NCBI RefSeq assembly: GCF_013409205.1
Contig: NZ_JACCAE010000001.1
Coordinates: 62,001-126,000, forward strand
Direction of reading: 5' to 3'
Source of the DNA: Janibacter cremeus
Lineage (GTDB): Bacteria > Actinomycetota > Actinomycetes > Actinomycetales > Dermatophilaceae
Length of the DNA: 64,000 bases
Shown here: piece after piece, positions 16,810 to 28,500 of the stretch
Layout of the letters: each line of letters starts with the position of its first letter
Numbering within the stretch: position 1 is the first letter of the stretch
The notes under the pieces: model-generated
Told to the model about the DNA's origin: nothing
Database searches by the model: none
Seen by the model: the letters and a program-made list of their open reading frames with translations, nothing else
Program-made: the position numbers and the translations under genes

Positions 16810-16838
16810 TTGGCGTGCAGTGGGTTTCGCCATACTAG
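16810..16838 (+). promoter_or_regulatory. Candidate promoter P1 of ectABC, overlapped by an inverted repeat
   Basis: TTGGCG (16810-16815) and TACTAG (16833-16838) with a 17-base spacer. A TTCGC-N7-GCGAA inverted repeat (16826-16842) covers the -10 and could be a repressor site. The transcript would start near 16845, giving a ~40-base leader before ectA. Confidence 0.5.
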
Positions 16839-16850
16839 CGAAGCGCGGAC

Positions 16851-16878
16851 TTGATCTGTGCGCAGGTCACGTTAGGTT
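16851..16878 (+). promoter_or_regulatory. Candidate promoter P2 of ectABC (leaderless)
   Basis: TTGATC (16851-16856), 16-base spacer, TAGGTT (16873-16878), then 7 bases to the ectA GTG. The transcript would begin at or next to the start codon. This agrees with the lack of a ribosome-binding site before ectA. Confidence 0.5.
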
Positions 16879-16885
16879 GAAACAG

Positions 16886-17401
16886 GTGACCCCCGACGCA
16901 TCAGATGACCAAAAGCCCTCCGACGAGTCCCTCTTCGTCCTGCGCCAGCCGACCATTTCGGACGGTGGCGCCATGTGGCGTGTGGCCAAGGACTCCCGGA
17001 CACTCGACCTCAACACCTCCTACGCCTACCTGTTGTGGGCGCGGGACTTCGCCACGACGAGCGTCGTCGCCGTGCGTGCCGGTGGGGTCGTCGGCTTCGT
17101 GAGCGGCTACATCCGTCCCGACGCACCGCACACCCTGATGGTGTGGCAGGTTGCCGTCGACGCCGACCAGCGCGGTCATGGACTGGCCGGCCGTATGCTT
17201 GACCACCTGGCCGACACCGTGCCGGGCATGACCTCGCTCGAGACGACGATCACCGACGACAACGCCGCCTCCCGTGCGCTCTTCGGTGCCTTCGCCCGCA
17301 AGCGCGACGCGAACCACCAGGAGATCGACCTCTTCACGCGCGAGCACTTCCCCGACGAGGGACACGAGCCGGAGGTGCTGCACCGCATCGGACCGTTCTG
17401 A
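16886..17401 (+). CDS. ectA: L-2,4-diaminobutyrate N-acetyltransferase EctA
   Basis: A 171-residue GNAT-fold enzyme that acetylates L-2,4-diaminobutyrate, the second step from aspartate semialdehyde to the compatible solute ectoine. Typical EctA sequence is present: RVAKDSRTLDLNTSYAYLLWARDFATTS, the acetyl-CoA loop VAVDADQRGHGLAGRML, and TITDDNAASRALF. I chose the GTG at 16886; a longer frame to 16820 would run into the promoter. There is no Shine-Dalgarno before it, which fits leaderless translation. First gene of ectABC; 55 bp before ectB. Confidence 0.95.
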   Translation: MTPDASDDQKPSDESLFVLRQPTISDGGAMWRVAKDSRTLDLNTSYAYLLWARDFATTSVVAVRAGGVVGFVSGYIRPDAPHTLMVWQVAVDADQRGHGLAGRMLDHLADTVPGMTSLETTITDDNAASRALFGAFARKRDANHQEIDLFTREHFPDEGHEPEVLHRIGPF

Positions 17402-17456
17402 TCCCGACCCCGACGACTTCCCCACTCCCCGAGCCCCTGACGAGGAAGGACCTCCC

Positions 17457-18737
17457 ATGAGCAATCCCGCCACAGACATCTTCACCACACGCGAGTCCGA
17501 GGTGCGCAGCTACTGCCGCAACTGGCCCGTCGTCTTCAACACGGCGAAGGGCCCGTACCAGTACACCGAGGACGGTGAGCGCTACACCGACTTCTTCTCC
17601 GGTGCCGGCGCTCTCAACTACGGGCACAACAACGACGTCCTCAAGGAAGTGCTCCTGGAGTACATCGCGGGCGACGGCGTCACCCACTCCATGGACATGT
17701 ACACCAAGGCCAAGCGTGAGTTCCTCGAGACCTTCACCGATCTGGTCCTCACCCCGCGTGGCATGAACCACAAGATCCAGTTCCCCGGCCCGACCGGCAC
17801 CAACGCCGTCGAGACCGCGTTGAAGACGGCCCGCAAGGCGACCGGTCGTGAGGACATCGTCTCCTTCACCAATGCCTTCCACGGCATGACCTTGGGCGCC
17901 CTGGCCGTGACCGGGAACGCTTTCAAGCGCAGCGGAGCCGGCACGCCCCTTTACCACGCGACGGCGGCCCCCTACGACGACTACATCGACGGCGAGACGT
18001 CCGACTTCGCCTGGCTCAAGCGCATCTGGGCCGACAGCAGCTCCGGTCACAGTCGGCCCGCCGCCGTCATCGTCGAGACCGTGCAGGGTGAGGGTGGCCT
18101 CAACGCCGCACGTGGCCAGTGGCTCAAGGAGCTGCAGGAGCTCTGCCGCGAGCACGAGGTACTGCTCATCGTCGACGACGTCCAGGCCGGCTGTGGCCGC
18201 ACCGGCAAGTTCTTCTCCTTCGAGGACTTCGGCCTCGACCCGGACATCATCACCCTGAGCAAGTCGATCTCCGGCTACGGCCTCCCGATGGCGCTGACCC
18301 TGATCAAGCCGGAGATCGACGACTGGGAGCCCGGCGAGCACAACGGCACCTTCCGCGGTCACAACCCGGCCTTCGTCACCGGGACCAAGGCGTTGCGCAC
18401 GTACTGGGCCGATGACGAGCTCGAGAAGAACGTCGCCGCACGCACCGAGCAGCTGTACGCGCGTCTCGAGGTCATCGCCGGTTTGGCCGAGGGGAGCAAG
18501 GTCCGTGGACGCGGTCTACTCTCCGGCGTCGCCTTCGCCGACCTCGAGGCCGCGGACAACATCGCCAAGGCAGCCTTCCAGCGCAAGCTGCTCATCGAGA
18601 CCTCCGGCTCCTCCGACGAGGTCATCAAGATCATGCCGCCGCTGACCATCACCGAGGAGCAGCTCGCCGACGGCCTGGACATCCTCGAGGACGCTGCACG
18701 TGAGGTCCTGGGCGCTCCCGCCCGAGCGGGCGCCTGA
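17457..18737 (+). CDS. ectB: Diaminobutyrate--2-oxoglutarate transaminase EctB
   Basis: A 426-residue class-III aminotransferase that converts aspartate 4-semialdehyde to L-2,4-diaminobutyrate with glutamate as donor, the first dedicated ectoine step. Visible hallmarks: FFSGAGALNYGHNN, FPGPTGTNAVETALK, DDVQAGCGRTG, and the PLP lysine K269 in LSKSISGYGLPMAL. ATG at 17457 is preceded by GGAAGGA. Full family length, no lesions. It supplies EctA with substrate, and gene order A-B-C is standard. Confidence 0.97.
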   Translation: MSNPATDIFTTRESEVRSYCRNWPVVFNTAKGPYQYTEDGERYTDFFSGAGALNYGHNNDVLKEVLLEYIAGDGVTHSMDMYTKAKREFLETFTDLVLTPRGMNHKIQFPGPTGTNAVETALKTARKATGREDIVSFTNAFHGMTLGALAVTGNAFKRSGAGTPLYHATAAPYDDYIDGETSDFAWLKRIWADSSSGHSRPAAVIVETVQGEGGLNAARGQWLKELQELCREHEVLLIVDDVQAGCGRTGKFFSFEDFGLDPDIITLSKSISGYGLPMALTLIKPEIDDWEPGEHNGTFRGHNPAFVTGTKALRTYWADDELEKNVAARTEQLYARLEVIAGLAEGSKVRGRGLLSGVAFADLEAADNIAKAAFQRKLLIETSGSSDEVIKIMPPLTITEEQLADGLDILEDAAREVLGAPARAGA

Positions 18738-19692: not shown

Positions 19693-20981
19693 CCGATCCC
19701 GAGACCTCCTCGAGCAGTAGCCTTGCCCCGCACCAGCTGTGGAGAGGGGTCCGCGAAAGTGCCCGCAGCGACGCCTTCGGTGGTGGTCTCCTGCTTGCTG
19801 CCACGGTGTTCGCCCTCTTCTGCGCCAACACGCCCGCCGTCGACATGTACGAGTCCCTGCGGGACACCAAGATCGGTCCCTCTGCACTGCACCTGGACCT
19901 GTCCCTCGGGCAGTGGGCCGCCGATGGTCTGCTGGCGATCTTCTTCTTCGTCGTCGGCCTGGAGCTGAAGGAGGAGTTCGTCGCCGGAAAACTGCGGGAT
20001 CCCAAGACGGCAGCACTGCCGATCGCCGCAGCAGCCGGCGGGGTGGTCGTCCCCGCGGTCATCTACACCCTCATCACGACATCCAGCGGCGGCGAGGCGC
20101 TCCAGGGATGGGCGATCCCGACGGCCACCGACATCGCGTTCGCCGTCGCGGTCCTGGCCATTGTCGCGCGTGGGCTCCCGTCCGCCCTGCGGGTCTTCCT
20201 GTTGACGCTGGCGATCGTCGACGACCTCATCGCCATCACCATCATCGCCGTCTTCTACGCCGAGGGCCTGCAGTTGCAGTGGTTGCTACTCGCTCTCGTC
20301 CCCTTGGTCCTCTTCGCGATCCTCGTCCAGCGAGGGGTGCTCACCTGGTGGCTCCTGGGCCCCCTGGGACTCGCGACCTGGGCCCTGGTACACCTCTCCG
20401 GGATCCACGCCACCGTCGCCGGAGTCCTCCTCGGCTTCACCGTCCCGGTCGTGGCCACGGCACGGGCCCGGGTGCAAAGTTCCACCACACAGGACGGTGA
20501 GCCGATCTACAACGGGTTCACGGCCTACTTGGCCGACCAGTGGGGCATCTTCTCCACCCTGGTCGCCGTCCCGGTCTTTGCCTTCTTCTCCGCAGGCGTG
20601 ACCGTCGGTGGCGTCGAGGGGATGTCCAAGGCGCTCGCGGACCCGATCACCCTGGGCATCATCGTGGGACTCGTCGTCGGCAAGCCGATCGGCATCGTCG
20701 GGACCAGCTTCTTGCTCAGCCGGTTGCCGTCCTTCAAGCTGGATCCGTCCCTGAGGTGGCCGGACATGATCGGGATGGGTTTCGTCGCCGGTGTCGGTTT
20801 CACGGTCTCGCTGCTCGTGGGAGAGCTCGCGTTCGGCAGCTCCAGCGTCGCCGACGAGCACGTGAAGATCGGCGTCCTCCTGGGCTCCTTCGCTGCCGCC
20901 GTCTGCGGTGCCGTCATCCTCGGTATCCGTGGCCGCCAACTCGGATCAGCAGCCACAGGGACCGAGGCCGCCAGCTCCTGA
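19689..20981 (+). CDS. nhaA: Na+/H+ antiporter NhaA
   Basis: A 430-residue integral membrane antiporter that expels Na+ in exchange for protons, important in alkaline or salty conditions. About 11-12 hydrophobic helices are visible, with the family's ion-binding aspartate pair (D178-D179 in LAIVDDLIAI) and the conserved IFFFVVGLELKEEF and PTATDIAFAVAVLA motifs. ATG at 19689 has GGAGG 11 bases ahead, a little long, which may reflect coupling to the short upstream frame. Placement beside ectABC fits a salt-stress neighbourhood, but they are not one operon. Confidence 0.95.
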   Translation: MTDPETSSSSSLAPHQLWRGVRESARSDAFGGGLLLAATVFALFCANTPAVDMYESLRDTKIGPSALHLDLSLGQWAADGLLAIFFFVVGLELKEEFVAGKLRDPKTAALPIAAAAGGVVVPAVIYTLITTSSGGEALQGWAIPTATDIAFAVAVLAIVARGLPSALRVFLLTLAIVDDLIAITIIAVFYAEGLQLQWLLLALVPLVLFAILVQRGVLTWWLLGPLGLATWALVHLSGIHATVAGVLLGFTVPVVATARARVQSSTTQDGEPIYNGFTAYLADQWGIFSTLVAVPVFAFFSAGVTVGGVEGMSKALADPITLGIIVGLVVGKPIGIVGTSFLLSRLPSFKLDPSLRWPDMIGMGFVAGVGFTVSLLVGELAFGSSSVADEHVKIGVLLGSFAAAVCGAVILGIRGRQLGSAATGTEAASS

Positions 20982-21086
20982 GCACGCCACGACATCGGCC
21001 CCGCACCCGTCCACGACGCAGTTGGCGCACTGCGCATGTCTCGAGCGGGTCACAGGTGGAGCAGAACAGCCGATGTGCCCGTCGCC

Positions 21087-21108
21087 GGATGCTAGCGTTC
21101 CGGCATCC
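21087..21108 (+). promoter_or_regulatory. Inverted repeat over a candidate -10, upstream of the binding lipoprotein gene
   Basis: GGATGC (21087-21092) and GCATCC (21103-21108) flank a TAGCGT hexamer (21093-21098) that fits the -10 pattern. A regulator bound here would block transcription. The transcript start would be near 21105, leaving a ~75-base leader. The rest of the 198-bp gap 20982-21179 shows nothing else I can name. Confidence 0.35.
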
Positions 21109-21179
21109 ACATGGCCGGGGAAGGGTCACGCCGACAACGATGCCGGTCGGACCCTCGGCAGTCTGTCTAAGGAGAACGT

Positions 21180-22445
21180 ATGCGTGTGAGCATGCGCACG
21201 AAGACGCTCAGTGTCACAGCGGCTGCGCTGATGGTGCTTTCCGCCTGCGGTGGGGGCGGTGATGGAGGCGATGGCGATTCCGGCGGCGATGGCGGTTCGA
21301 GCGAACCCCTGAAGCTGGGCTACGTACTCCCTGAGACCGGACAGCTCGCCTTCCTCGGGCCGCCCCAGATCCAGGCGTCGAAGTACGCGATCAGCCAGAT
21401 CAACGATGCCGGCGGTGTCCTGGAGCAGGACATCCCGGCGCTCGTCAGCGGTGACGAGGCCGATACGGCAGCCATCGCCTCCCAGTCCGCCGAGCGCGTG
21501 CTCAACGCGGACGTGGACGCCATCATCGGAGCGGCTGCGTCGGGCATGTCCTTGGCGATCATCGACAAGATCACCGGGTCGCAGGTCGTGCAGTGCTCGG
21601 GCTCCAACACGGCCCCGACCTTCACCGGCTACAAGGACGACGGTTACTACTTCCGCACCGCACCGTCGGATGCGATGCAGGGGCCGGTCCTGGCCGAGAC
21701 GATCATCGGTGACGGGTACAGCAACGTCGCGCTCGTCGGCCGCGCCGACGACTACGGCAAGGGTCTGGTGGATGCCACCGCCAAGGCGCTGGAGAGCTCC
21801 GGCGCGACGATCGCCACCAAGGAGATGTACGACCCCAAGGCGACCAACTTCGACGCCGTCGTCCAGAAGGCCGTCACCGCGAAGCCGGATGCGGTCGTGC
21901 TGGTGGCCTTCGAGGAGGGCAAGCAGATCCTGTCCGGTCTGGTGGAGGCGGGTCTGACCACCGACAAGGTCGGCCTCTACGGGGCGGACGGCCTGCGCAG
22001 CGAGGAGCTGCCGGAGCTGGTGAACAAGAAGGACCCCAGCGTCCTGTCCGGTATGAAGGGCACGGCGCCGGCGTCCTCGGCCAACGAGGCCTTCCTGAAG
22101 GACCTGAAGGAGTTCGCTCCGGACCTGAAGGAGACGCAGTTCGCACCGCAGGTCTTCGACTGCGTCAACATCATCGCTCTGGCTGCCGAGCAGGCGGACA
22201 GCACTGACCCGACCGAGTTCAAGGACGAGGTCAACGGGGTGACCAAGGACGGCGAGGAGTGCTCCTCCTTCGAGGAATGCAAGGCACTCATCGACGACGG
22301 CACCGACATCAACTACCAGGGGGCCAGCGGTCCGCTGGACTTCACCGATGACGGGGAGCCGGGTGCGGCCTCGATCGAGGTCTACACCTTCAACGACAAG
22401 GGTGACCTCAAGACGGTCCGGGTCCAGGAAGTCTCACCGGAGTGA
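21180..22445 (+). CDS. Branched-chain amino-acid type ABC transporter substrate-binding lipoprotein
   Basis: A 421-residue periplasmic-binding-type protein of the LivK/Leu-Ile-Val family. The N-terminus is a lipoprotein signal: charged start, hydrophobic core, then LSAC with the lipidated cysteine near residue 23, followed by a Gly/Asp-rich spacer. The type-I binding fold follows, with LGYVLPETGQLAFLGPP, GAAASGMSLAIID, and VALVGRADDYGKGLVD. ATG at 21180 has AAGGAG 6 bases ahead. The matching permeases and ATPases (livFGMH) are convergent at 22537-26600, across a shared terminator. The real ligand may be any branched-chain or related amino acid. Confidence 0.9.
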   Translation: MRVSMRTKTLSVTAAALMVLSACGGGGDGGDGDSGGDGGSSEPLKLGYVLPETGQLAFLGPPQIQASKYAISQINDAGGVLEQDIPALVSGDEADTAAIASQSAERVLNADVDAIIGAAASGMSLAIIDKITGSQVVQCSGSNTAPTFTGYKDDGYYFRTAPSDAMQGPVLAETIIGDGYSNVALVGRADDYGKGLVDATAKALESSGATIATKEMYDPKATNFDAVVQKAVTAKPDAVVLVAFEEGKQILSGLVEAGLTTDKVGLYGADGLRSEELPELVNKKDPSVLSGMKGTAPASSANEAFLKDLKEFAPDLKETQFAPQVFDCVNIIALAAEQADSTDPTEFKDEVNGVTKDGEECSSFEECKALIDDGTDINYQGASGPLDFTDDGEPGAASIEVYTFNDKGDLKTVRVQEVSPE

Positions 22446-22470
22446 GTCGAAGCAGCCACGGCTGCACTTC

Positions 22471-22505
22471 GAAGGGCCCGACCGCACCATGCGGTCGGGC
22501 CCTTC
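22471..22505. terminator. Bidirectional terminator between binding protein gene and livF
   Basis: A perfect 15-bp GC-rich stem (GAAGGGCCCGACCGC with GCGGTCGGGCCCTTC) and a 5-base loop lie between the two convergent stops. No T-run. Confidence 0.8.
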
Positions 22506-22536
22506 GCCCGTGTGGGTGCAAGCGTGTCGGGGTTGC

Positions 22537-23280
22537 TCAGATGCGCGCGAGGGTCCCGAGGTAGAGCTCGATCACTTTCGGGTCGTGGAGCAACTCCTGT
22601 CCCGTCCCGGTGTAGGCGTTCTGGCCCTGGTCGAGGACGTAGGCGCGGTCGGAGATCTCCAGGCAATTGGTGGCGTTCTGCTCGACCATGAGGATGGAGA
22701 CGCCGGATCGGTTGATCGTCAGGACCGACTCGAAGACGGAGTCCTGCATCATCGGCGAGAGGCCTGCTGACGGTTCGTCAAGGAGGAGCACTGCCGGGTC
22801 GGTCATGAGGGCGCGCCCCATGGCGACCACCTGTCGTTCTCCACCGGAGAGCGAGCCGCACTTCTGGTTCCGTCGCTCGGACAGCAGCGGGAAGATCTCG
22901 CTCACCACCGCGAATCGCGTTGTGAACTCCTTGGGCCGCAGATACATCCCCATCTCGAGGTTCTCCTCGACGGTCAGGGACGGAAAGACGTTGTTGTTCT
23001 GCGGGACGTACCCGATCCCCTCGGAGACCATGGCGTGCGCCGGCAAGGACGTGATGTCCTTCTCGGCCAGCAGGACCTTGCCACCGGTCACCGGTACCAG
23101 GCCGAACATGGCCTTGATCAGGGTCGACTTCCCGGCGCCGTTGGGGCCGATGATCCCGACGAGTTCGCCCTGGTCGACGCGAGCGTTGCACCCCCGCAGG
23201 ATGTCGACTCCCGGGATGTATCCGGCCACGAGATCGACTGCGGTGAGCACGGTCTCCCGGGTGGTGTCGATGTCATCCAT
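22537..23280 (-). CDS. livF: Branched-chain amino-acid ABC transporter ATP-binding protein LivF
   Basis: A 247-residue ABC ATPase. Walker A is GPNGAGKSTLIK, the signature is LSGGERQVVAMGRAL, and Walker B is PAVLLLDEPSAGLSP; the YVPQNNNVFPSLTVEENL Q-loop is LivF-typical. It energises import together with LivG. ATG at 23280 overlaps the livG stop by 8 bp, so the two are translationally coupled. A longer open frame upstream sits inside livG and is not used. Confidence 0.94.
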   Translation of the reverse strand: MDDIDTTRETVLTAVDLVAGYIPGVDILRGCNARVDQGELVGIIGPNGAGKSTLIKAMFGLVPVTGGKVLLAEKDITSLPAHAMVSEGIGYVPQNNNVFPSLTVEENLEMGMYLRPKEFTTRFAVVSEIFPLLSERRNQKCGSLSGGERQVVAMGRALMTDPAVLLLDEPSAGLSPMMQDSVFESVLTINRSGVSILMVEQNATNCLEISDRAYVLDQGQNAYTGTGQELLHDPKVIELYLGTLARI

Positions 23281-24202
23281 CGTTGCTCTCCTCCTCGTCC
23301 TGGTCCCGGGGCAGGCTCCGGTGCGCTCCGAGGTAGGCGTCGATGACCGCCTTGTCCCGTCGGATGTCATCGGGGCGCCCCTCGGCGATGAGCCTGCCCT
23401 GGGCGAATGTGGTCACCCAGTCACTGATCCCCATCACGACGTCCATGTCGTGCTCGACGAGGACGATGGTCATCCCCTCGTCCCGCAGGGCCTGGATGTG
23501 GCCGAGCAGGGACTGGGTCAGGGCCGGGTTCACGCCGGCCATGGGCTCATCGAGCATGATCATCGTCGGCTCGACCATCAGGGCCCGGGCCATCTCCAGC
23601 AGCTTGCGCTGCCCACCCGACATGGTGCCGGCGAACTCGTCCCGCATGTGGGCGAGGTTGAAGCGCTCGAGGAGCTCGTCGGCACGTGCGCCGATCACTG
23701 CCTCCTGCGACCGCCACGGGAACCTCAGCAGTGCTGGGATGAACCGCTCCCCCACCTGCTGCGTCGCTCCGAGCATGAGGTTCTCGCGTGCCGTGAGCCT
23801 GGTCAGGGCCTTCGTCAGTTGGAAGGTTCGGACCATTCCCCGTCGGGCCACCCGGTGGGCGGACAGCTTCGATACGTCCGATCCCTGGAAGCTCCAGGTC
23901 CCGTCGTCCGGGGTGTCGAATCCGGAGACCACGTTGAAGAAGGTCGACTTGCCGGCGCCGTTGGGGCCGATGAGAGAGGTGATCGTGCCCCGCTGGATCT
24001 CGAGGTGGTCGACATCGACCGCCTTGAGCCCGCCGAAGCTGCGCACGACGTCGTCGGCGACGAAGATCGCGTCAGGCTTCGCGACCCCCGGCTCCGGACG
24101 CACGCCCATGAGCTGGGCGGCTCCCACGGTTGGTGCATCACTACTCATCGTCGGATCCCCCTTGGGTCCGTCCGCGATGCCGTGTTCCCGGTCATCGGAC
24201 AT
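23273..24202 (-). CDS. livG: Branched-chain amino-acid ABC transporter ATP-binding protein LivG
   Basis: A 309-residue ABC ATPase with Walker A GPNGAGKSTFFNVVSGF, signature MSGGQRKLLEMARAL, Walker B MIMLDEPMAGVNP and the LivG-typical C-terminal IAEGRPDDIRRDKAVIDAYLG. About 45 residues precede the usual start of the ABC domain. ATG at 24202 has AAGGAG 10 bases ahead; an ATG 18 codons in (MSSDAP) is an alternative. It overlaps livM by 11 bp. Confidence 0.94.
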   Translation of the reverse strand: MSDDREHGIADGPKGDPTMSSDAPTVGAAQLMGVRPEPGVAKPDAIFVADDVVRSFGGLKAVDVDHLEIQRGTITSLIGPNGAGKSTFFNVVSGFDTPDDGTWSFQGSDVSKLSAHRVARRGMVRTFQLTKALTRLTARENLMLGATQQVGERFIPALLRFPWRSQEAVIGARADELLERFNLAHMRDEFAGTMSGGQRKLLEMARALMVEPTMIMLDEPMAGVNPALTQSLLGHIQALRDEGMTIVLVEHDMDVVMGISDWVTTFAQGRLIAEGRPDDIRRDKAVIDAYLGAHRSLPRDQDEEESNDG

Positions 24203-25184
24203 CGAGCCTCAGCTCCTTCTGGTCACCGAGGATCCCCGCCGGCCGGTAGACCATCAGCAGGACCAGACCGAGGCCGACGAGGAGGAAGCGAGCTGCTCCG
24301 ACGTCGCCGCTGTCGAGGATGCTCGAGGGAATGAGCCCGGAGGCCGTCGCGCTGCGCAGGAACGCATCGAAGAAGGTGACGATGAACCAGAACAGGATCG
24401 ACCCCAGGACGGGGCCCATCACCCGACTCGCTCCGCCGAGGATGACGATCGTGTAGAGGTAGAAGGTCACCTTCGGGTCGTAGCTGTCCGGCTGGACGGA
24501 CTGTGCGCTGATCGCCATGAGGACTCCGGCGAGGCCACCAATGGCACCGCCGAGCACGAGGCTCTGCAGCTTGAAGCTGTAGGCGCTCTTGCCCAGACTG
24601 CGGGCCGCGAGCTCGTCCTCGCGCACGGAGCGCAGCACGCGCCCCCAGGGACTGCTGATGAGCAGCTTGACCATGATGCAGCCCAGTGCCACCAGCCCCC
24701 ACGTGACCGTCATCACCCACATCGAGCGGTGATCGAAGGTGACCCGGCCGAAACCGTACGTTCCGTCGGCCCAGGGGTTGATCGCGAAGAACTCGTCGGC
24801 GAACTGCCGCAGGCCGTAGACACCACCGGTGAGCGGCTCGAGGGTGCTCGACCGGTAGAAGTACCGAAGCACCTCGGCCGCAGCGATGGTGGCGATCGCC
24901 AGGTAGTCGCCCCGTAGTCGCAGGGTCGGCAGCCCCAGGATCAGGGCGAGGACGACGGCGCAGGCGATTCCCACGAGCACCCCGACCCACATCGACCACC
25001 CGAAGGTGGCCACGGAGACGGCGACGCCGTAGGCGCCGACGAGCATGAAGCCCACCTGACCGAAGTTGAGCAGGCCGGTGTACCCGAAGTGGATGTTGAG
25101 ACCGATCGCGGACAGGGCGAAGATCGCCGCCTCGGGTCCGAACATTCCGCGAACGGCGTTACCGATGATGCTGGGCCAGTCCAT
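24192..25184 (-). CDS. livM: Branched-chain amino-acid ABC transporter permease LivM
   Basis: A 330-residue inner-membrane permease with 8-10 hydrophobic helices and the LivM hallmarks GLNIHFGYTGLLNFGQVGFMLVGAYG, LGLPTLRLRGDYLAIATIAAAEV, and the coupling loop with GRVLRSVREDELAARSLG that contacts the ATPases. ATG at 25184 is preceded by AAGGAGA. It pairs with LivH to form the channel. The gene is 21 bp from livH. Confidence 0.94.
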   Translation of the reverse strand: MDWPSIIGNAVRGMFGPEAAIFALSAIGLNIHFGYTGLLNFGQVGFMLVGAYGVAVSVATFGWSMWVGVLVGIACAVVLALILGLPTLRLRGDYLAIATIAAAEVLRYFYRSSTLEPLTGGVYGLRQFADEFFAINPWADGTYGFGRVTFDHRSMWVMTVTWGLVALGCIMVKLLISSPWGRVLRSVREDELAARSLGKSAYSFKLQSLVLGGAIGGLAGVLMAISAQSVQPDSYDPKVTFYLYTIVILGGASRVMGPVLGSILFWFIVTFFDAFLRSATASGLIPSSILDSGDVGAARFLLVGLGLVLLMVYRPAGILGDQKELRLDVR

Positions 25185-25205
25185 TTCTCTCCTTGACTCG
25201 TCGGT

Positions 25206-26600
25206 CTAACCGACGCGCTCGGCCCGACCAAGAATTCCTTGGGGGCGCACGAGCAGGACGATGATGAGAGCCAGTAGTGCCCAGGCGTTCTGGAGCTCGG
25301 TGGGGAACCAGAGCGTCGACAGCTGGGCCACGAGACCGACGACCAGACTTCCGACCACGGCGCCGAAGGCGCTTCCGAGGCCACCGAGAATCACGCCGGC
25401 GAACATCAGCAACAGCAGGTTGAACCCCATGTCCCAGTAGACGGCTGTGGTCAGTCCGTAGAAGACGCCACCGAGGGCGGCCAGTCCGCCACCGAGGATC
25501 CACACGAAGAGGATCACTCGGTTGACGTCGATACCTGATGACTCGGCCAGGTCACGGTTGTCGGAGACCGCGCGCATGGCCTTCCCGATCCGCGTGCGCT
25601 GAAGCATCAATCCGACGCCGATGATGACGAGGATGGCGATGACCGTCACCGTGAGGTCCCGGGGCGTGATCGAGACCGGGCCGAAGTCGATCTCCTTCTG
25701 CAGCGCGTACTGGTCGTACTGCTGGCGCCTGCCGCCGTAGAGGACGAGGAGTAGGTGACGCAGGAACAGGGAGACACCGATCGAGATGATGAACATCTGG
25801 ATCAGCCCGGTGCCTCTCAGCCGCAGTGGCCGCCACAACCCGCGCTCGAGAACGGCACCCGCGGCCCCGCCGATGAGGATGGCGAGGACCGCAGCCAGCG
25901 CGAGGGGGAGGTTGAAGGCCCCGGCGGAGAAGAAGAAGGCGGCGATGGCGCCGAGGGTGACCAGCTCCCCGTGGGCGAAGTTGATCAGTCCGGTGGTCCC
26001 GAAGACGAGGGAGAGTCCCACCGAGGTGATGGCGATGATCGTGCCGTACTTCACCCCTTCGACGACGAGTTGGAGGAAACGGCCGGTGAACCCACTGCCG
26101 CTGGTGCCGGCGGATCCGGAGTCGGCCTGCGGGTCCGAGGCGCCCTCATCACCGGATGACGTCGCGGATGTCGTGGGTGTCGCGGCCTCCTGCTGCTCGT
26201 CGTTGGCGATGAGCGCGAAGATCACGGTGGAGTCCCGTCCGGACCTGACCTCCACCTCGGGTAGTTCCTCGCCACCCTTGTCCCGCGTCTTCATACCCTT
26301 GGGCAGGGTGTCGACATCCAGGGCGACCGAGTATGTGCCGGGCTCGGGGACCTCGATGCGCCACTCCCCCTCGGCGTCCGTGGTCGCGGTGCCGACCTCA
26401 CTCCCGTCAGCGGAGGCGGTCAGGGTGGCGCCCTTCACCGGTTCGCGGTCCGGCCCCCGCAAGGTGCCGGTGATTCCCACGCCGGTCGGCTCCTCGGCAG
26501 AGGTCGATGCTGTGGTCAGGGTGGTGCTCGCCCACGCAGCGGGCGCCACCAAGAGGGTGAAGAGCAGCGCCGCAAAGGCCACCGCGAAGCGCGTTCGCAC
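25206..26600 (-). CDS. livH: LivH-type permease fused to an N-terminal exported beta-sandwich-like domain
   Basis: A 464-residue protein, about 170 residues longer than ordinary LivH (~290). Residues 1-25 are a signal peptide ending APAAWAS. Residues ~38-130 look like a carboxypeptidase-regulatory or SpaA-like beta-sandwich: GVGITGTLRGPDREPVKGATL, then TTDAEGEWRIEVPEPGTYSV. A Ser/Thr/Gly/Ala linker (~135-170) leads to the permease (171-464) with VVEGVKYGTIIAITSVGLSLV, GLINFAHGELVTLGA and the coupling loop RTRIGKAMRAVSDNRDLAESSG. GTG at 26600 has GGAGGA 6 bases upstream, and the signal peptide begins exactly there, so the fusion is real. The extra domain should face the outside, where the binding protein docks. 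Confidence 0.92.
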   Translation of the reverse strand: MRTRFAVAFAALLFTLLVAPAAWASTTLTTASTSAEEPTGVGITGTLRGPDREPVKGATLTASADGSEVGTATTDAEGEWRIEVPEPGTYSVALDVDTLPKGMKTRDKGGEELPEVEVRSGRDSTVIFALIANDEQQEAATPTTSATSSGDEGASDPQADSGSAGTSGSGFTGRFLQLVVEGVKYGTIIAITSVGLSLVFGTTGLINFAHGELVTLGAIAAFFFSAGAFNLPLALAAVLAILIGGAAGAVLERGLWRPLRLRGTGLIQMFIISIGVSLFLRHLLLVLYGGRRQQYDQYALQKEIDFGPVSITPRDLTVTVIAILVIIGVGLMLQRTRIGKAMRAVSDNRDLAESSGIDVNRVILFVWILGGGLAALGGVFYGLTTAVYWDMGFNLLLLMFAGVILGGLGSAFGAVVGSLVVGLVAQLSTLWFPTELQNAWALLALIIVLLVRPQGILGRAERVG

Positions 26601-26640
26601 GTGCTGTCCTCCGGAAACGTCGTTGTTCGTAACGGTGTGG

Positions 26641-26697
26641 AGCGTAGCGTCACAACAGGGGATCTGGTGACCGGATGCTGGACAGTCACCTGACTGT
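26641..26697 (-). promoter_or_regulatory. Upstream region of the liv operon: candidate -10 and palindrome
   Basis: On the minus strand TACGCT (26641-26646) fits TANNNT and would give a ~35-base leader before livH. Upstream lies a perfect 16-bp palindrome, ACAGTCA-CC-TGACTGT (26682-26697), a likely regulator site. No strong -35 is seen. Confidence 0.4.
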
Positions 26698-26736
26698 GAC
26701 CTTACTCGGTGGGATCACTCGATTCCGGACATGAAA

Positions 26737-26770
26737 CCGCCCTCGATCTGCAACTGCGGATCGAGGGCGG
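26737..26770 (-). terminator. Terminator of tRNA-Pro
   Basis: A 12-bp stem (CCGCCCTCGATC with GATCGAGGGCGG) and a 10-base loop lie directly downstream of the tRNA. On the minus strand it is followed by TTTC. Good intrinsic terminator. Confidence 0.8.
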
Positions 26771-26775
26771 GTCGG

Positions 26776-26849
26776 TCGGGCTGACAGGATTTGAACCTGC
26801 GACCCCGTGACCCCCAGTCACGTGCGCTACCAAACTGCGCCACAGCCCG
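26776..26849 (-). tRNA. tRNA-Pro, anticodon GGG
   Basis: A 74-base cloverleaf: acceptor CGGGCTG/CAGCCCG, D-arm GCGC/GCGC, anticodon arm CGTGA-CTGGGGG-TCACG with anticodon GGG, and T-arm GCAGG-TTCAAAT-CCTGT. Discriminator base is A; CCA is not fully encoded (ACCG). All stems pair. It reads CCC/CCT proline codons. It is followed by its own terminator and lies alone between livH and der. Confidence 0.96.
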
Positions 26850-26948
26850 TGGCTGCTCCCTCAGGAGCCACGTCACCTTATCCCACGCGGGCCGCGCCAT
26901 CACAATCGACCCACTGTGTGTCCGGGACGCTTACTGCCCCAGCGCCGC

Positions 26949-28427
26949 TCAGCGCCGCCGGCGCCTCTCTCGCACCCTCACCGAGATCTCGATCGGGGTG
27001 CCGTCGAAGCCGAACTCCTCCCGCAGGCGCCGCTCCAGGAAGCGTCGGTAGCCGGCCTCGAGGAAGCCAGAGGTGAAGATCACGAAGCGGGGGGGACGGG
27101 TGGATGCCTGGGTCGCGAAGAGGATCCGCGGCTGCTTGCCTCCCCGCACGGGGTGGGGGTGACCGGCCACGATCTCCCCGAGGACGCCGTTGAGCCGGGA
27201 GGTGGGGATGCGGCGGTCCCACGACGCAAGAGCCGTGTCCAGGGCGGGCGTCAGCTTGTCCACGTGGCGACCGGTGAGCGCGGAGACGTTCACGCGCGGC
27301 GCCCAGGTGACCCGGACGAGCTCACGGTCGATCTCCTTCTCGAGGTAGTAGCGCCGCTCCTCGTCGAGCAGATCCCACTTGTTGTAGGCGATGACCAGGG
27401 CCCGACCGGTCTCGACGACCTGGCTGATGATGCGCAGGTCCTGCTCGGTGATCGACTCGTGGGTGTCGATGAGGACGACTGCGACCTCAGCCTTCTCCAG
27501 CGCTGCCTGCGTACGCAGGGAGGCGTAGAAGTCGGCTCCCCGGGTCTGGTTGACCCGTCGTCGGATCCCGGCGGTGTCGACGAAGTTCCACGGGCGGCCG
27601 CCGAGCTCGATGATCTCGTCGACGGGGTCGCGGGTGGTCCCGGCGACGTCGTCGACGACGACCCGCTCCTCCCCCGCGAGGCGGTTGAGCAGACTCGACT
27701 TGCCCACGTTGGGGCGGCCCACCAGGGCCACTCGACGGGGCCCTCCCTGCAGCGGGGCCTTGCCGGCGGCCGAGACCTGCGGCAGCACGTCGAGGACGGC
27801 GTCCAGGACGTCACCACTTCCCCGGCCGTGCAGCGCCGACAGGGGCATCGGTTCACCGAGTCCGAGGTTCCACAGGGCGGCTGCATCGGCCTCGAAGCGC
27901 TGGTCGTCGACCTTGTTGGCGACCAGCACGACCGGCTTGCCGGAGCGGCGCAGCAGCTTGACGACCGACTCGTCGTCGTCTGTGGCGCCGACGATGGCGT
28001 CAACGACGAAGATGACCACATCGGCCATCTCGATCGCGACCTCGGCCTGCTCGGCCACCCGTAGGTTGATCCCCTCGACACCGATCTCCCAGCCACCAGT
28101 GTCCAGCAGCGTGAAGTCGCGGCCGGCCCACTCCGCGTCGTAGGCGACGCGATCGCGGGTGACCCCCGGCGTGTCCTCCACCACGGCCTCGCGGCGCCGC
28201 AGGATGCGGTTGACCAGGGTCGACTTGCCGACATTGGGTCGCCCGATGATCGCGACGACGGGAAGGGGGCCGGTGGGCGTGTCGTCGACCGTCTCCTGAA
28301 AACCGTCGATGAGCGCCCGGTCCTCCGGCGTCAGCTCGAAGTCATCCAGACCCGCGCGCAGGACGCGCTCGATGCCATCGGCATGCTGCTCGTGCCCAGC
28401 GTCGGTCGGCTCGGGAGTGGTGTCCAC
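26949..28427 (-). CDS. der: Ribosome-biogenesis GTPase Der (EngA)
   Basis: A 492-residue protein with two tandem GTPase domains and a KH-like C-terminal domain; it acts in 50S ribosome maturation. First G1 motif is [13 protein letters not shown] with DTPGVTRDR, second is [13 protein letters not shown] with [17 protein letters not shown] and NKWD motifs follow. About 55 extra acidic residues precede the first domain, as in many actinobacteria. GTG at 28427 has AGGAG 5 bases ahead. Last gene of the xerD-to-der operon. Confidence 0.96.
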
Positions 28428-28500
28428 GGTGCTCCTGGTGAAATCGGTTGGGAGTGACCCATTGTCGCAGTCATCGCCACGATGACCGCACGTGTGGGCG

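What the first reader, a model, noticed from the sequence alone, without database searches (positions are those of the whole stretch)
25206..26600. LivH permease fused to a secreted beta-sandwich-like domain
A normal LivH (~290 aa) is preceded here by a signal peptide, a ~95-residue domain resembling carboxypeptidase-regulatory/SpaA folds, and a Ser/Thr linker. The reading frame, ribosome site and signal peptide all agree, so it is not a misassembly. The extra domain would sit outside the cell next to the binding protein, where it might guide docking or anchor to the wall. I do not know of this arrangement being described.
Basis: partly seen in the sequence, partly recalled or inferred. Interest (0 to 1): 0.7.

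Follow-up and report, generated by a model that had tools for sequence, protein, structure and literature searches.

The report
Amino-acid permease with secreted outer domain
A bacterial amino-acid importer subunit carries a small extra domain, probably outside the cell, attached to its front end; the feature is real and shared by many relatives, and the lengths of the flexible arms on it and on its partner binding protein hint that the two touch.

Summary
ORF 26600-25206 (-) encodes a signal-peptide-like start, a PF13620 (CarboxypepD_reg; SdrD-B-like) domain, a linker and a complete PF02653 LivH-type permease. It is not peculiar to this genome: the domain is in 54 of 60 regions fetched from the hits, 79 of 80 loci and 72 of 72 complete loci. 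The permease tree needs one gain and one loss (Streptomyces type, signal-peptide-like start kept); the loss rests on unstarred forks. The domain is under purifying selection (median dN/dS 0.21). livHMGF faces a convergent binding-protein gene in 116 of 125 loci. Public names already mention the domain; the paper searches that bear on the fusion listed no description by title or abstract. New here: LivH linker and binding-protein tether lengths vary inversely (contrasts r -0.35; -0.45 in further loci; -0.42 combined). That mildly supports contact between domain and binding protein, but it was found post hoc and the linker class changes only 7 times. A wall anchor is not supported.

The parts
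26607..26612 (-). Shine-Dalgarno-like GGAGGA, 6 nt before the GTG start
   Evidence: sequence
26529..26600 (-). signal-peptide-like segment, residues 1-24 (A-W-A before S25)
   Evidence: sequence by eye. Relatives: A-x-A within residues 13-65 in 153 of 162 domain-bearing ORFs against 31 of 162 in residues 66-118 of the same ORFs; K/R before the hydrophobic core in 128 of 162. Starts were chosen upstream of a hydrophobic stretch.
26475..26528 (-). pre-domain spacer, residues 25-42
   Evidence: sequence
26202..26474 (-). CarboxypepD_reg/SdrD-B-like domain, residues 43-133, probably extracytoplasmic
   Evidence: PF13620 40.8 bits at 43-130; ortholog profile matches SdrD of known structure, E 3.4e-12
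26076..26201 (-). linker, residues 134-175 (45 residues from domain-model end to residue 176)
25209..26075 (-). LivH-type permease part, residues 176-464
   Evidence: PF02653 158.5 bits, residues 181-449
24192..25184 (-). livM permease
   Evidence: PF02653 155.9 bits
23273..24202 (-). livG ATPase (ORF as listed; true start may be internal)
   Evidence: PF00005, PF12399
22537..23370 (-). livF ATPase (ORF as listed; true start may be internal)
   Evidence: PF00005
21180..22445 (+). convergent gene for a lipoprotein-type substrate-binding protein (about 24 residues from the lipobox-like Cys to the core motif, counted by eye)
   Evidence: PF13458 138.4 bits; same arrangement in 116 of 125 domain-bearing loci

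Best explanation
What it is (about 0.95): the LivH subunit of an Actinomycetota-type ABC importer of the branched-chain amino-acid family, which gained one CarboxypepD_reg/SdrD-B-type domain behind a signal-peptide-like start at the base of its clade. The domain is probably exported and stays tethered outside the membrane just before TM1. How it works (about 0.45): most likely as an outer docking or holding platform for the lipid-anchored binding protein encoded at the same locus, keeping it near LivHM, as MalF-P2 does with maltose-binding protein. Shown: sequence, orthology, purifying selection, conserved locus, inverse linker/tether lengths. Inferred: export, fold, contact with the binding protein, effect on transport, substrate.
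For: Domain and signal-peptide-like start in most sampled orthologs; two changes on a 139-row tree; median dN/dS domain 0.21, linker 0.35, permease 0.13. Binding-protein gene convergent to livHMGF in 116 of 125 domain-bearing loci. LivH linker and binding-protein tether vary inversely: Spearman -0.66 (n=96); contrasts r -0.345, p 0.007 (85 contrasts); 60 further loci r -0.454, two-sided p 0.006, still -0.467, p 0.006, in the 43 of them less than 85% identical to the first set; combined r -0.42, p 0.0001 (150 contrasts), -0.156, p 0.0008, after dropping the top 10 contrasts. Contrasts of two controls, pre-domain spacer (r 0.165, p 0.14) and binding-protein core length (r -0.043, p 0.75), do not show it. 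MalF-P2 is a precedent (passages of PMC3150292).
Against: The tether relation was noticed post hoc among several statistics. The linker class changes only 7 times; of 6 independent pairs on starred branches about 3 to 0 go the predicted way at thresholds 24, 32 and 36 and 2.1 to 0.7 at 28, none significant. In the first set it fades when the top 3 or 5 contrasts are dropped (p 0.06, 0.23). The further loci share deep clades with the first. Without tree correction the spacer control also correlates with the tether, positively (0.35, p 0.0008). Tethers and linkers were measured by regular expressions and profile ends. The distance-matrix partial correlation of domain and binding protein is -0.003, but the 89 fastest LivH columns also give 0.006, so that test is uninformative. 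Streptomyces-type loci lost the domain with no visible compensating insertion in a binding protein that is 62-63% identical to the window's. The charge pattern fits an outside N-terminus only if 215-248 holds two spans.
Confidence: 0.47

Rival explanations
1. The domain packs on the outer face of LivH/LivM and stabilises or gates the permease; it does not meet the binding protein.
For: Partial distance correlation of the domain is with livH (0.186) and livM (0.199), not with livG (0.066), livF (-0.017) or the binding protein (-0.003); linkers of 11-29 residues in 147 of 204 entries.
Against: The link with livM falls to 0.052 in a thinned set of 35, and the fastest LivH columns show the same pattern (0.319 with livM, 0.006 with the binding protein), so it is not specific to the domain. 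Linkers of 50-59 residues in 32 entries would let the domain roam. It does not predict the inverse linker/tether lengths.
Confidence: 0.25
2. A passenger: an easily exported beta domain gained once and kept for insertion or folding of LivH rather than for transport.
For: Faster evolution than the permease (median dN/dS 0.21 against 0.13, some pairs near 0.9); absent in the Streptomyces type while the signal-peptide-like start stayed.
Against: Kept in all other sampled members of the clade; other LivH clades lack the domain, and the paralog read out in L093 starts at TM1.
Confidence: 0.15
3. A wall or surface adhesion module, as the SdrD-B resemblance would suggest.
For: Best matches of known structure are in SdrD, a staphylococcal surface protein.
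Against: Short linkers to TM1 in 147 of 204 entries; such domains also match NOMO and other proteins. Wall motifs were not searched for.
Confidence: 0.08
4. An annotation or assembly artefact: translation starts at the permease part.
For: None found; a secondary internal start cannot be excluded.
Against: Ribosome site, signal-peptide-like start, conserved frame and purifying selection in many genomes.
Confidence: 0.02

Closest known systems
LivH of the LIV ABC importers (PF02653)
   Same: complete permease domain, livHMGF operon, Peripla_BP_6 binding protein
   Different: the LivH paralog read out in L093 begins at TM1; here a signal-peptide-like start and a domain precede it; LivH equivalog PRK10740 scores 124.2 against cut-off 379
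UrtB urea permease with N-terminal extension (Hydrogenophilus thermoluteolus plasmid pTH1, 533 aa)
   Same: LivH-superfamily permease behind a signal-peptide-like start and an N-terminal domain
   Different: its domain is HEAT_2 (31.1 bits, cut-off 27.7) and our profile finds nothing in it; the other plasmid UrtB examined, A. fabrum, is annotated at 297 aa, without such an extension; our protein scores 150.5 against the TIGR03409 cut-off 250.3
MalF-P2 periplasmic region of the maltose importer
   Same: a separate outer region on one permease subunit, described as directly contacting the binding protein (passages of PMC3150292; title of Daus et al. 2009 in a reference list)
   Different: an insertion inside the subunit, in a different permease superfamily (recalled); no contact is shown here
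CarboxypepD_reg / SdrD-B-type domains
   Same: PF13620 above cut-off; SdrD of known structure E 3.4e-12 with the ortholog profile
   Different: there in surface proteins, NOMO and enzymes; here fused before an importer permease
NikL-type accessory subunit of Ni/Co ECF transporters
   Same: weak match NF058648, E 0.0025, residues 40-95
   Different: 17.8 bits against cut-off 100; separate subunit for metal transport (recalled, no call)

Membership tests
LivH-type permease (PF02653) | full-length match above curated cut-off | tested here: met
   158.5 bits against 26.8, positions 4-269 of 269
LivH-type permease (PF02653) | next to livM, livG, livF and a binding protein | tested here: met
E. coli-type LivH equivalog PRK10740 | score above cut-off 379 | tested here: not met
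   124.2 bits
UrtB (TIGR03409) | score above cut-off 250.3 | tested here: not met
   150.5 bits
CarboxypepD_reg (PF13620) | score above curated cut-off | tested here: met
   40.8 against 32.3 in the window; some orthologs fall below it, e.g. L115 19.5 and L070 17.2 bits
CarboxypepD_reg (PF13620) | transthyretin/prealbumin-like beta-sandwich fold | not testable with these tools
   structure prediction switched off; only sequence-profile matches to solved chains
MalF-P2-like docking domain (works like) | outside the membrane beside the permease | tested here: inconclusive
   signal-peptide-like start for; charge pattern fits only if 215-248 holds two spans, and loop 201-215 has few charges
MalF-P2-like docking domain (works like) | contact with the binding protein | tested here: inconclusive
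   inverse linker/tether lengths for; distance correlation null but without power

The most novel reading that the evidence does not exclude
A length-matched capture device across the Actinomycetota: the exported domain on LivH binds the lipid-anchored binding protein for most of the cycle, so the two flexible arms (LivH linker and lipoprotein tether) trade length against each other in evolution. The importer would thus carry a captive binding protein without fusing it to the permease.
Probability: 0.3. Interest if true: 0.7.

Novelty: new variant of a known kind. Interest (0 to 1): 0.45.

Why it matters
Gram-positive bacteria anchor their binding proteins by lipid tethers (recalled), and how such a protein is kept working with its importer is a question that this family makes testable: a conserved domain before the permease and a length trade-off against the binding-protein tether give direct predictions for deletion and arm-length experiments. 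The ortholog profile matched no permease of this family among solved structures at E up to 0.01, so the outer face of this importer is open ground.

Tried and rejected
Distance-matrix co-evolution seemed to tie the domain to LivM rather than to the binding protein; the control showed no power and no specificity, and the test also gave livF-binding protein 0.222, which are not expected to touch, so I use it neither for nor against docking. Median tether lengths by class (domain 33, n=96; none 24, n=9; Streptomyces type 18, n=5) looked like a stand-off effect, but long-linker relatives of Streptomyces that keep the domain also have short tethers, so the class difference alone is not used. A first version mis-set the tether of L173; corrected. 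A regulatory RNA near the gene: only the tRNA was found in 20000-28500. Plasmids: one place covers at least 80% of the query in 2 of 112 records with a match. Misses in the surveys (231 of 394; 239 of 296) may partly reflect that only 4 and 6 candidates per genome were scored, so tallies are lower bounds.

Rows dropped or repeated: tree input 206 rows after leaving out five repeated or unsuitable loci and identical rows, thinned to 139; three loci had no hit. Contrasts used only loci with the five genes, a detected domain, a detected lipobox and a linker under 100 (86, 60 and 151 loci). Six rows with missing distances were dropped. The survey sets overlap: 3 permease parts are shared by the sets of 60 and 80, and 5 by the sets of 60 and 29. 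One search holds 123 distinct permease parts among its 125 domain-bearing loci.

Full report
OBSERVATION. The ORF at 26600-25206 (minus strand, 464 aa) is as described: GGAGGA 6 nt before a GTG start, a signal-peptide-like segment ending A-W-A/S25 (by eye), a domain at 43-130 matching PF13620 (40.8 bits, cut-off 32.3), a linker, and a complete PF02653 permease at 181-449 (158.5 bits). The genome is one 3.3 Mb contig with 13 PF02653 stretches; the nearest named protein in the search is from Janibacter alittae, 93% identical. Downstream lie livM, livG and livF on the same strand, and a lipoprotein-type binding-protein gene convergent to them at 21180-22445.

DISTRIBUTION. The protein found a relative in 163 of 394 Actinomycetes genomes at E up to 1e-40; only 4 candidates per genome were scored, so this is a lower bound. 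I fetched 60 regions from 59 of those genomes: 54 of 60 carry the domain by a profile made from 32 orthologs (53 above 40 bits, L070 at 15 bits); four of the six others are of the Streptomyces type and two are other LivH paralogs. In a phylum-wide search 57 of 296 genomes matched at E up to 1e-60; the 29 loci returned besides the window carry the domain (5 are shared with the 60), and of 20 further places fetched, 7 carry it and 13, mostly weaker matches, do not. A further 80 regions, 78 and 2, were fetched: 76 were over 6 kb, 72 of these had all five genes, and 72 of 72 had the domain. In the window's own family 8 of 59 genomes have a match, 7 with the domain, so the system is patchy.

HISTORY. 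On a tree of the permease part alone (139 rows: 121 with domain, 17 without, 1 of Streptomyces type) the domain-bearing rows plus the Streptomyces type form one side of a starred branch (support 99), and two changes suffice, read as one gain and one loss; the place of the Streptomyces type inside the clade rests on unstarred forks (82 and 85), so the loss is likely, not proven. In the genus group that I take for Streptomyces (inferred from the named L173) 5 of 81 genomes matched at E up to 1e-80, with frames of 336-347 aa and no domain. L088, L090 and L173 begin with a signal-peptide-like segment joined to TM1. L080 has two tandem copies of the domain. Median dN/dS over close pairs is 0.21 for the domain (31 usable of 32; single pairs 0.05 to 0.90), 0.35 for the linker (29 usable) and 0.13 for the permease (30 usable), so the domain is maintained, though less strictly than the permease.

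TOPOLOGY AND GEOMETRY. A-x-A occurs in residues 13-65 of 153 of 162 domain-bearing ORFs against 31 of 162 in residues 66-118. Averaged over 189 rows, K/R-rich loops at 248-269, 332-363 and 452-464 mark the inside; this leaves the N-terminus outside if the hydrophobic stretch 215-248 holds two spans, which the profile only hints at (a break at 224-226), and loop 201-215, which should then be inside, has few charges. So export rests mainly on the signal-peptide-like start. From domain-model end to the start of TM1 the distance is bimodal: 11-29 residues in 147 of 204 entries (redundant set), 30-39 in 5, 40-59 in 49, over 100 in 3; the window has 45. The domain profile matches SdrD of known structure (E 3.4e-12) and NOMO2 (1.1e-8). 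With the full profile the four chains at E up to 0.01 match the domain only; no permease of this family appears.

LOCUS. In 116 of 125 domain-bearing loci of at least 8.5 kb, and in 5 of 5 of the Streptomyces type, the order is livH-livM-livG-livF facing a convergent binding-protein gene; seven show no binding protein in the stretch and two are otherwise arranged. Of 15 loci without domain 3 share the order.

MECHANISM TESTS. (1) Partial distance correlations recover some expected partners (binding protein with livH 0.32 and livM 0.30; livG with livF 0.35), but also livF with the binding protein (0.22), and give -0.003 for domain and binding protein. The 89 fastest LivH columns also give 0.006 with the binding protein, so this test cannot speak against docking. 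(2) The LivH linker and the binding protein's tether (lipobox Cys to core motif) vary inversely (Spearman -0.66, n=96). I noticed this after the first test; it is post hoc. With phylogenetic contrasts it holds (r -0.345, p 0.007), while contrasts of the pre-domain spacer (r 0.165, p 0.14) and of the binding-protein core length (r -0.043, p 0.75) do not show it; uncorrected, the spacer correlates positively (0.35). In loci fetched afterwards for this purpose r is -0.454 (60 loci, p 0.006), and -0.467 (43 loci, p 0.006) after removing those at least 85% identical to a first-set permease. Combined it is -0.42 (151 loci, p 0.0001), and -0.156 (p 0.0008) without the top 10 contrasts. Limits: the two sets share deep clades; the linker class changes 7 times; independent pairs lean the predicted way but are too few to reach significance; dropping 3 or 5 contrasts weakens the first set to p 0.06 and 0.23. 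Examples: Ornithinimicrobium L102/L103 linker 23/20, tether 60/57; Thermobifida L105/L106 linker 49/50, tether 21/20; same-family L327 17 and 51, same-genus L328 48 and 20.

READING. The simplest account is that domain and binding protein meet outside the membrane and that their total reach is conserved (sum 61.7, sd 14.5, against 22.4 if independent). Docking is my leading mechanism, at about even odds, ahead of a permease-face stabiliser. A wall anchor is unlikely.

KNOWN OR NEW. Databases already name some relatives by the domain (carboxypeptidase regulatory-like domain-containing protein, Janibacter cremeus). UrtB of Hydrogenophilus shows the same plan with HEAT repeats; of two plasmid UrtB genes examined one has the extension and one has not. 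Ten searches of open-access PMC papers were answered; five bear on the fusion (0, 4, 13, 1 and 0 papers), the others on UrtB (10, 53), LivFGHM cryo-EM (29), MalF-P2 (45) and NikL (64). I saw listings only, plus passages of PMC3328499 and PMC3150292, and no description of this fusion. Subscription papers were not searched. I call it a new variant of a known kind.

Noticed in passing
window 16820-18737 and about 19700-20981 (+): Genes that look like ectoine synthesis (an acetyltransferase and an EctB-like aminotransferase) followed by an NhaA-like Na+/H+ antiporter stand beside the binding-protein gene; identities are recalled from the sequences, not from a family search.
   Followed up: no
L073 5983-7431: This long-linker relative has an insertion between TM2 and TM3 of the permease; the lengths of L058 and L096 suggest the same.
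   Followed up: partly
L080 5320-6870: A LivH with two tandem copies of the outer domain.
   Followed up: partly
L088, L090, L173: The Streptomyces-type ortholog lacks the domain but keeps a signal-peptide-like segment joined straight to TM1.
   Followed up: yes
L247 1730-3331: UrtB of Hydrogenophilus has a signal-peptide-like start plus HEAT_2 repeats before the permease: a different N-terminal domain on the same permease superfamily.
   Followed up: partly
protein P0002: Its UniRef name, cut off in the listing, begins with Carboxypeptidase; probably the name of the regulatory-like domain, given to a permease.
   Followed up: no
window 26774-26849 (-): tRNA-Pro (ggg) directly upstream of the gene.
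   Followed up: no
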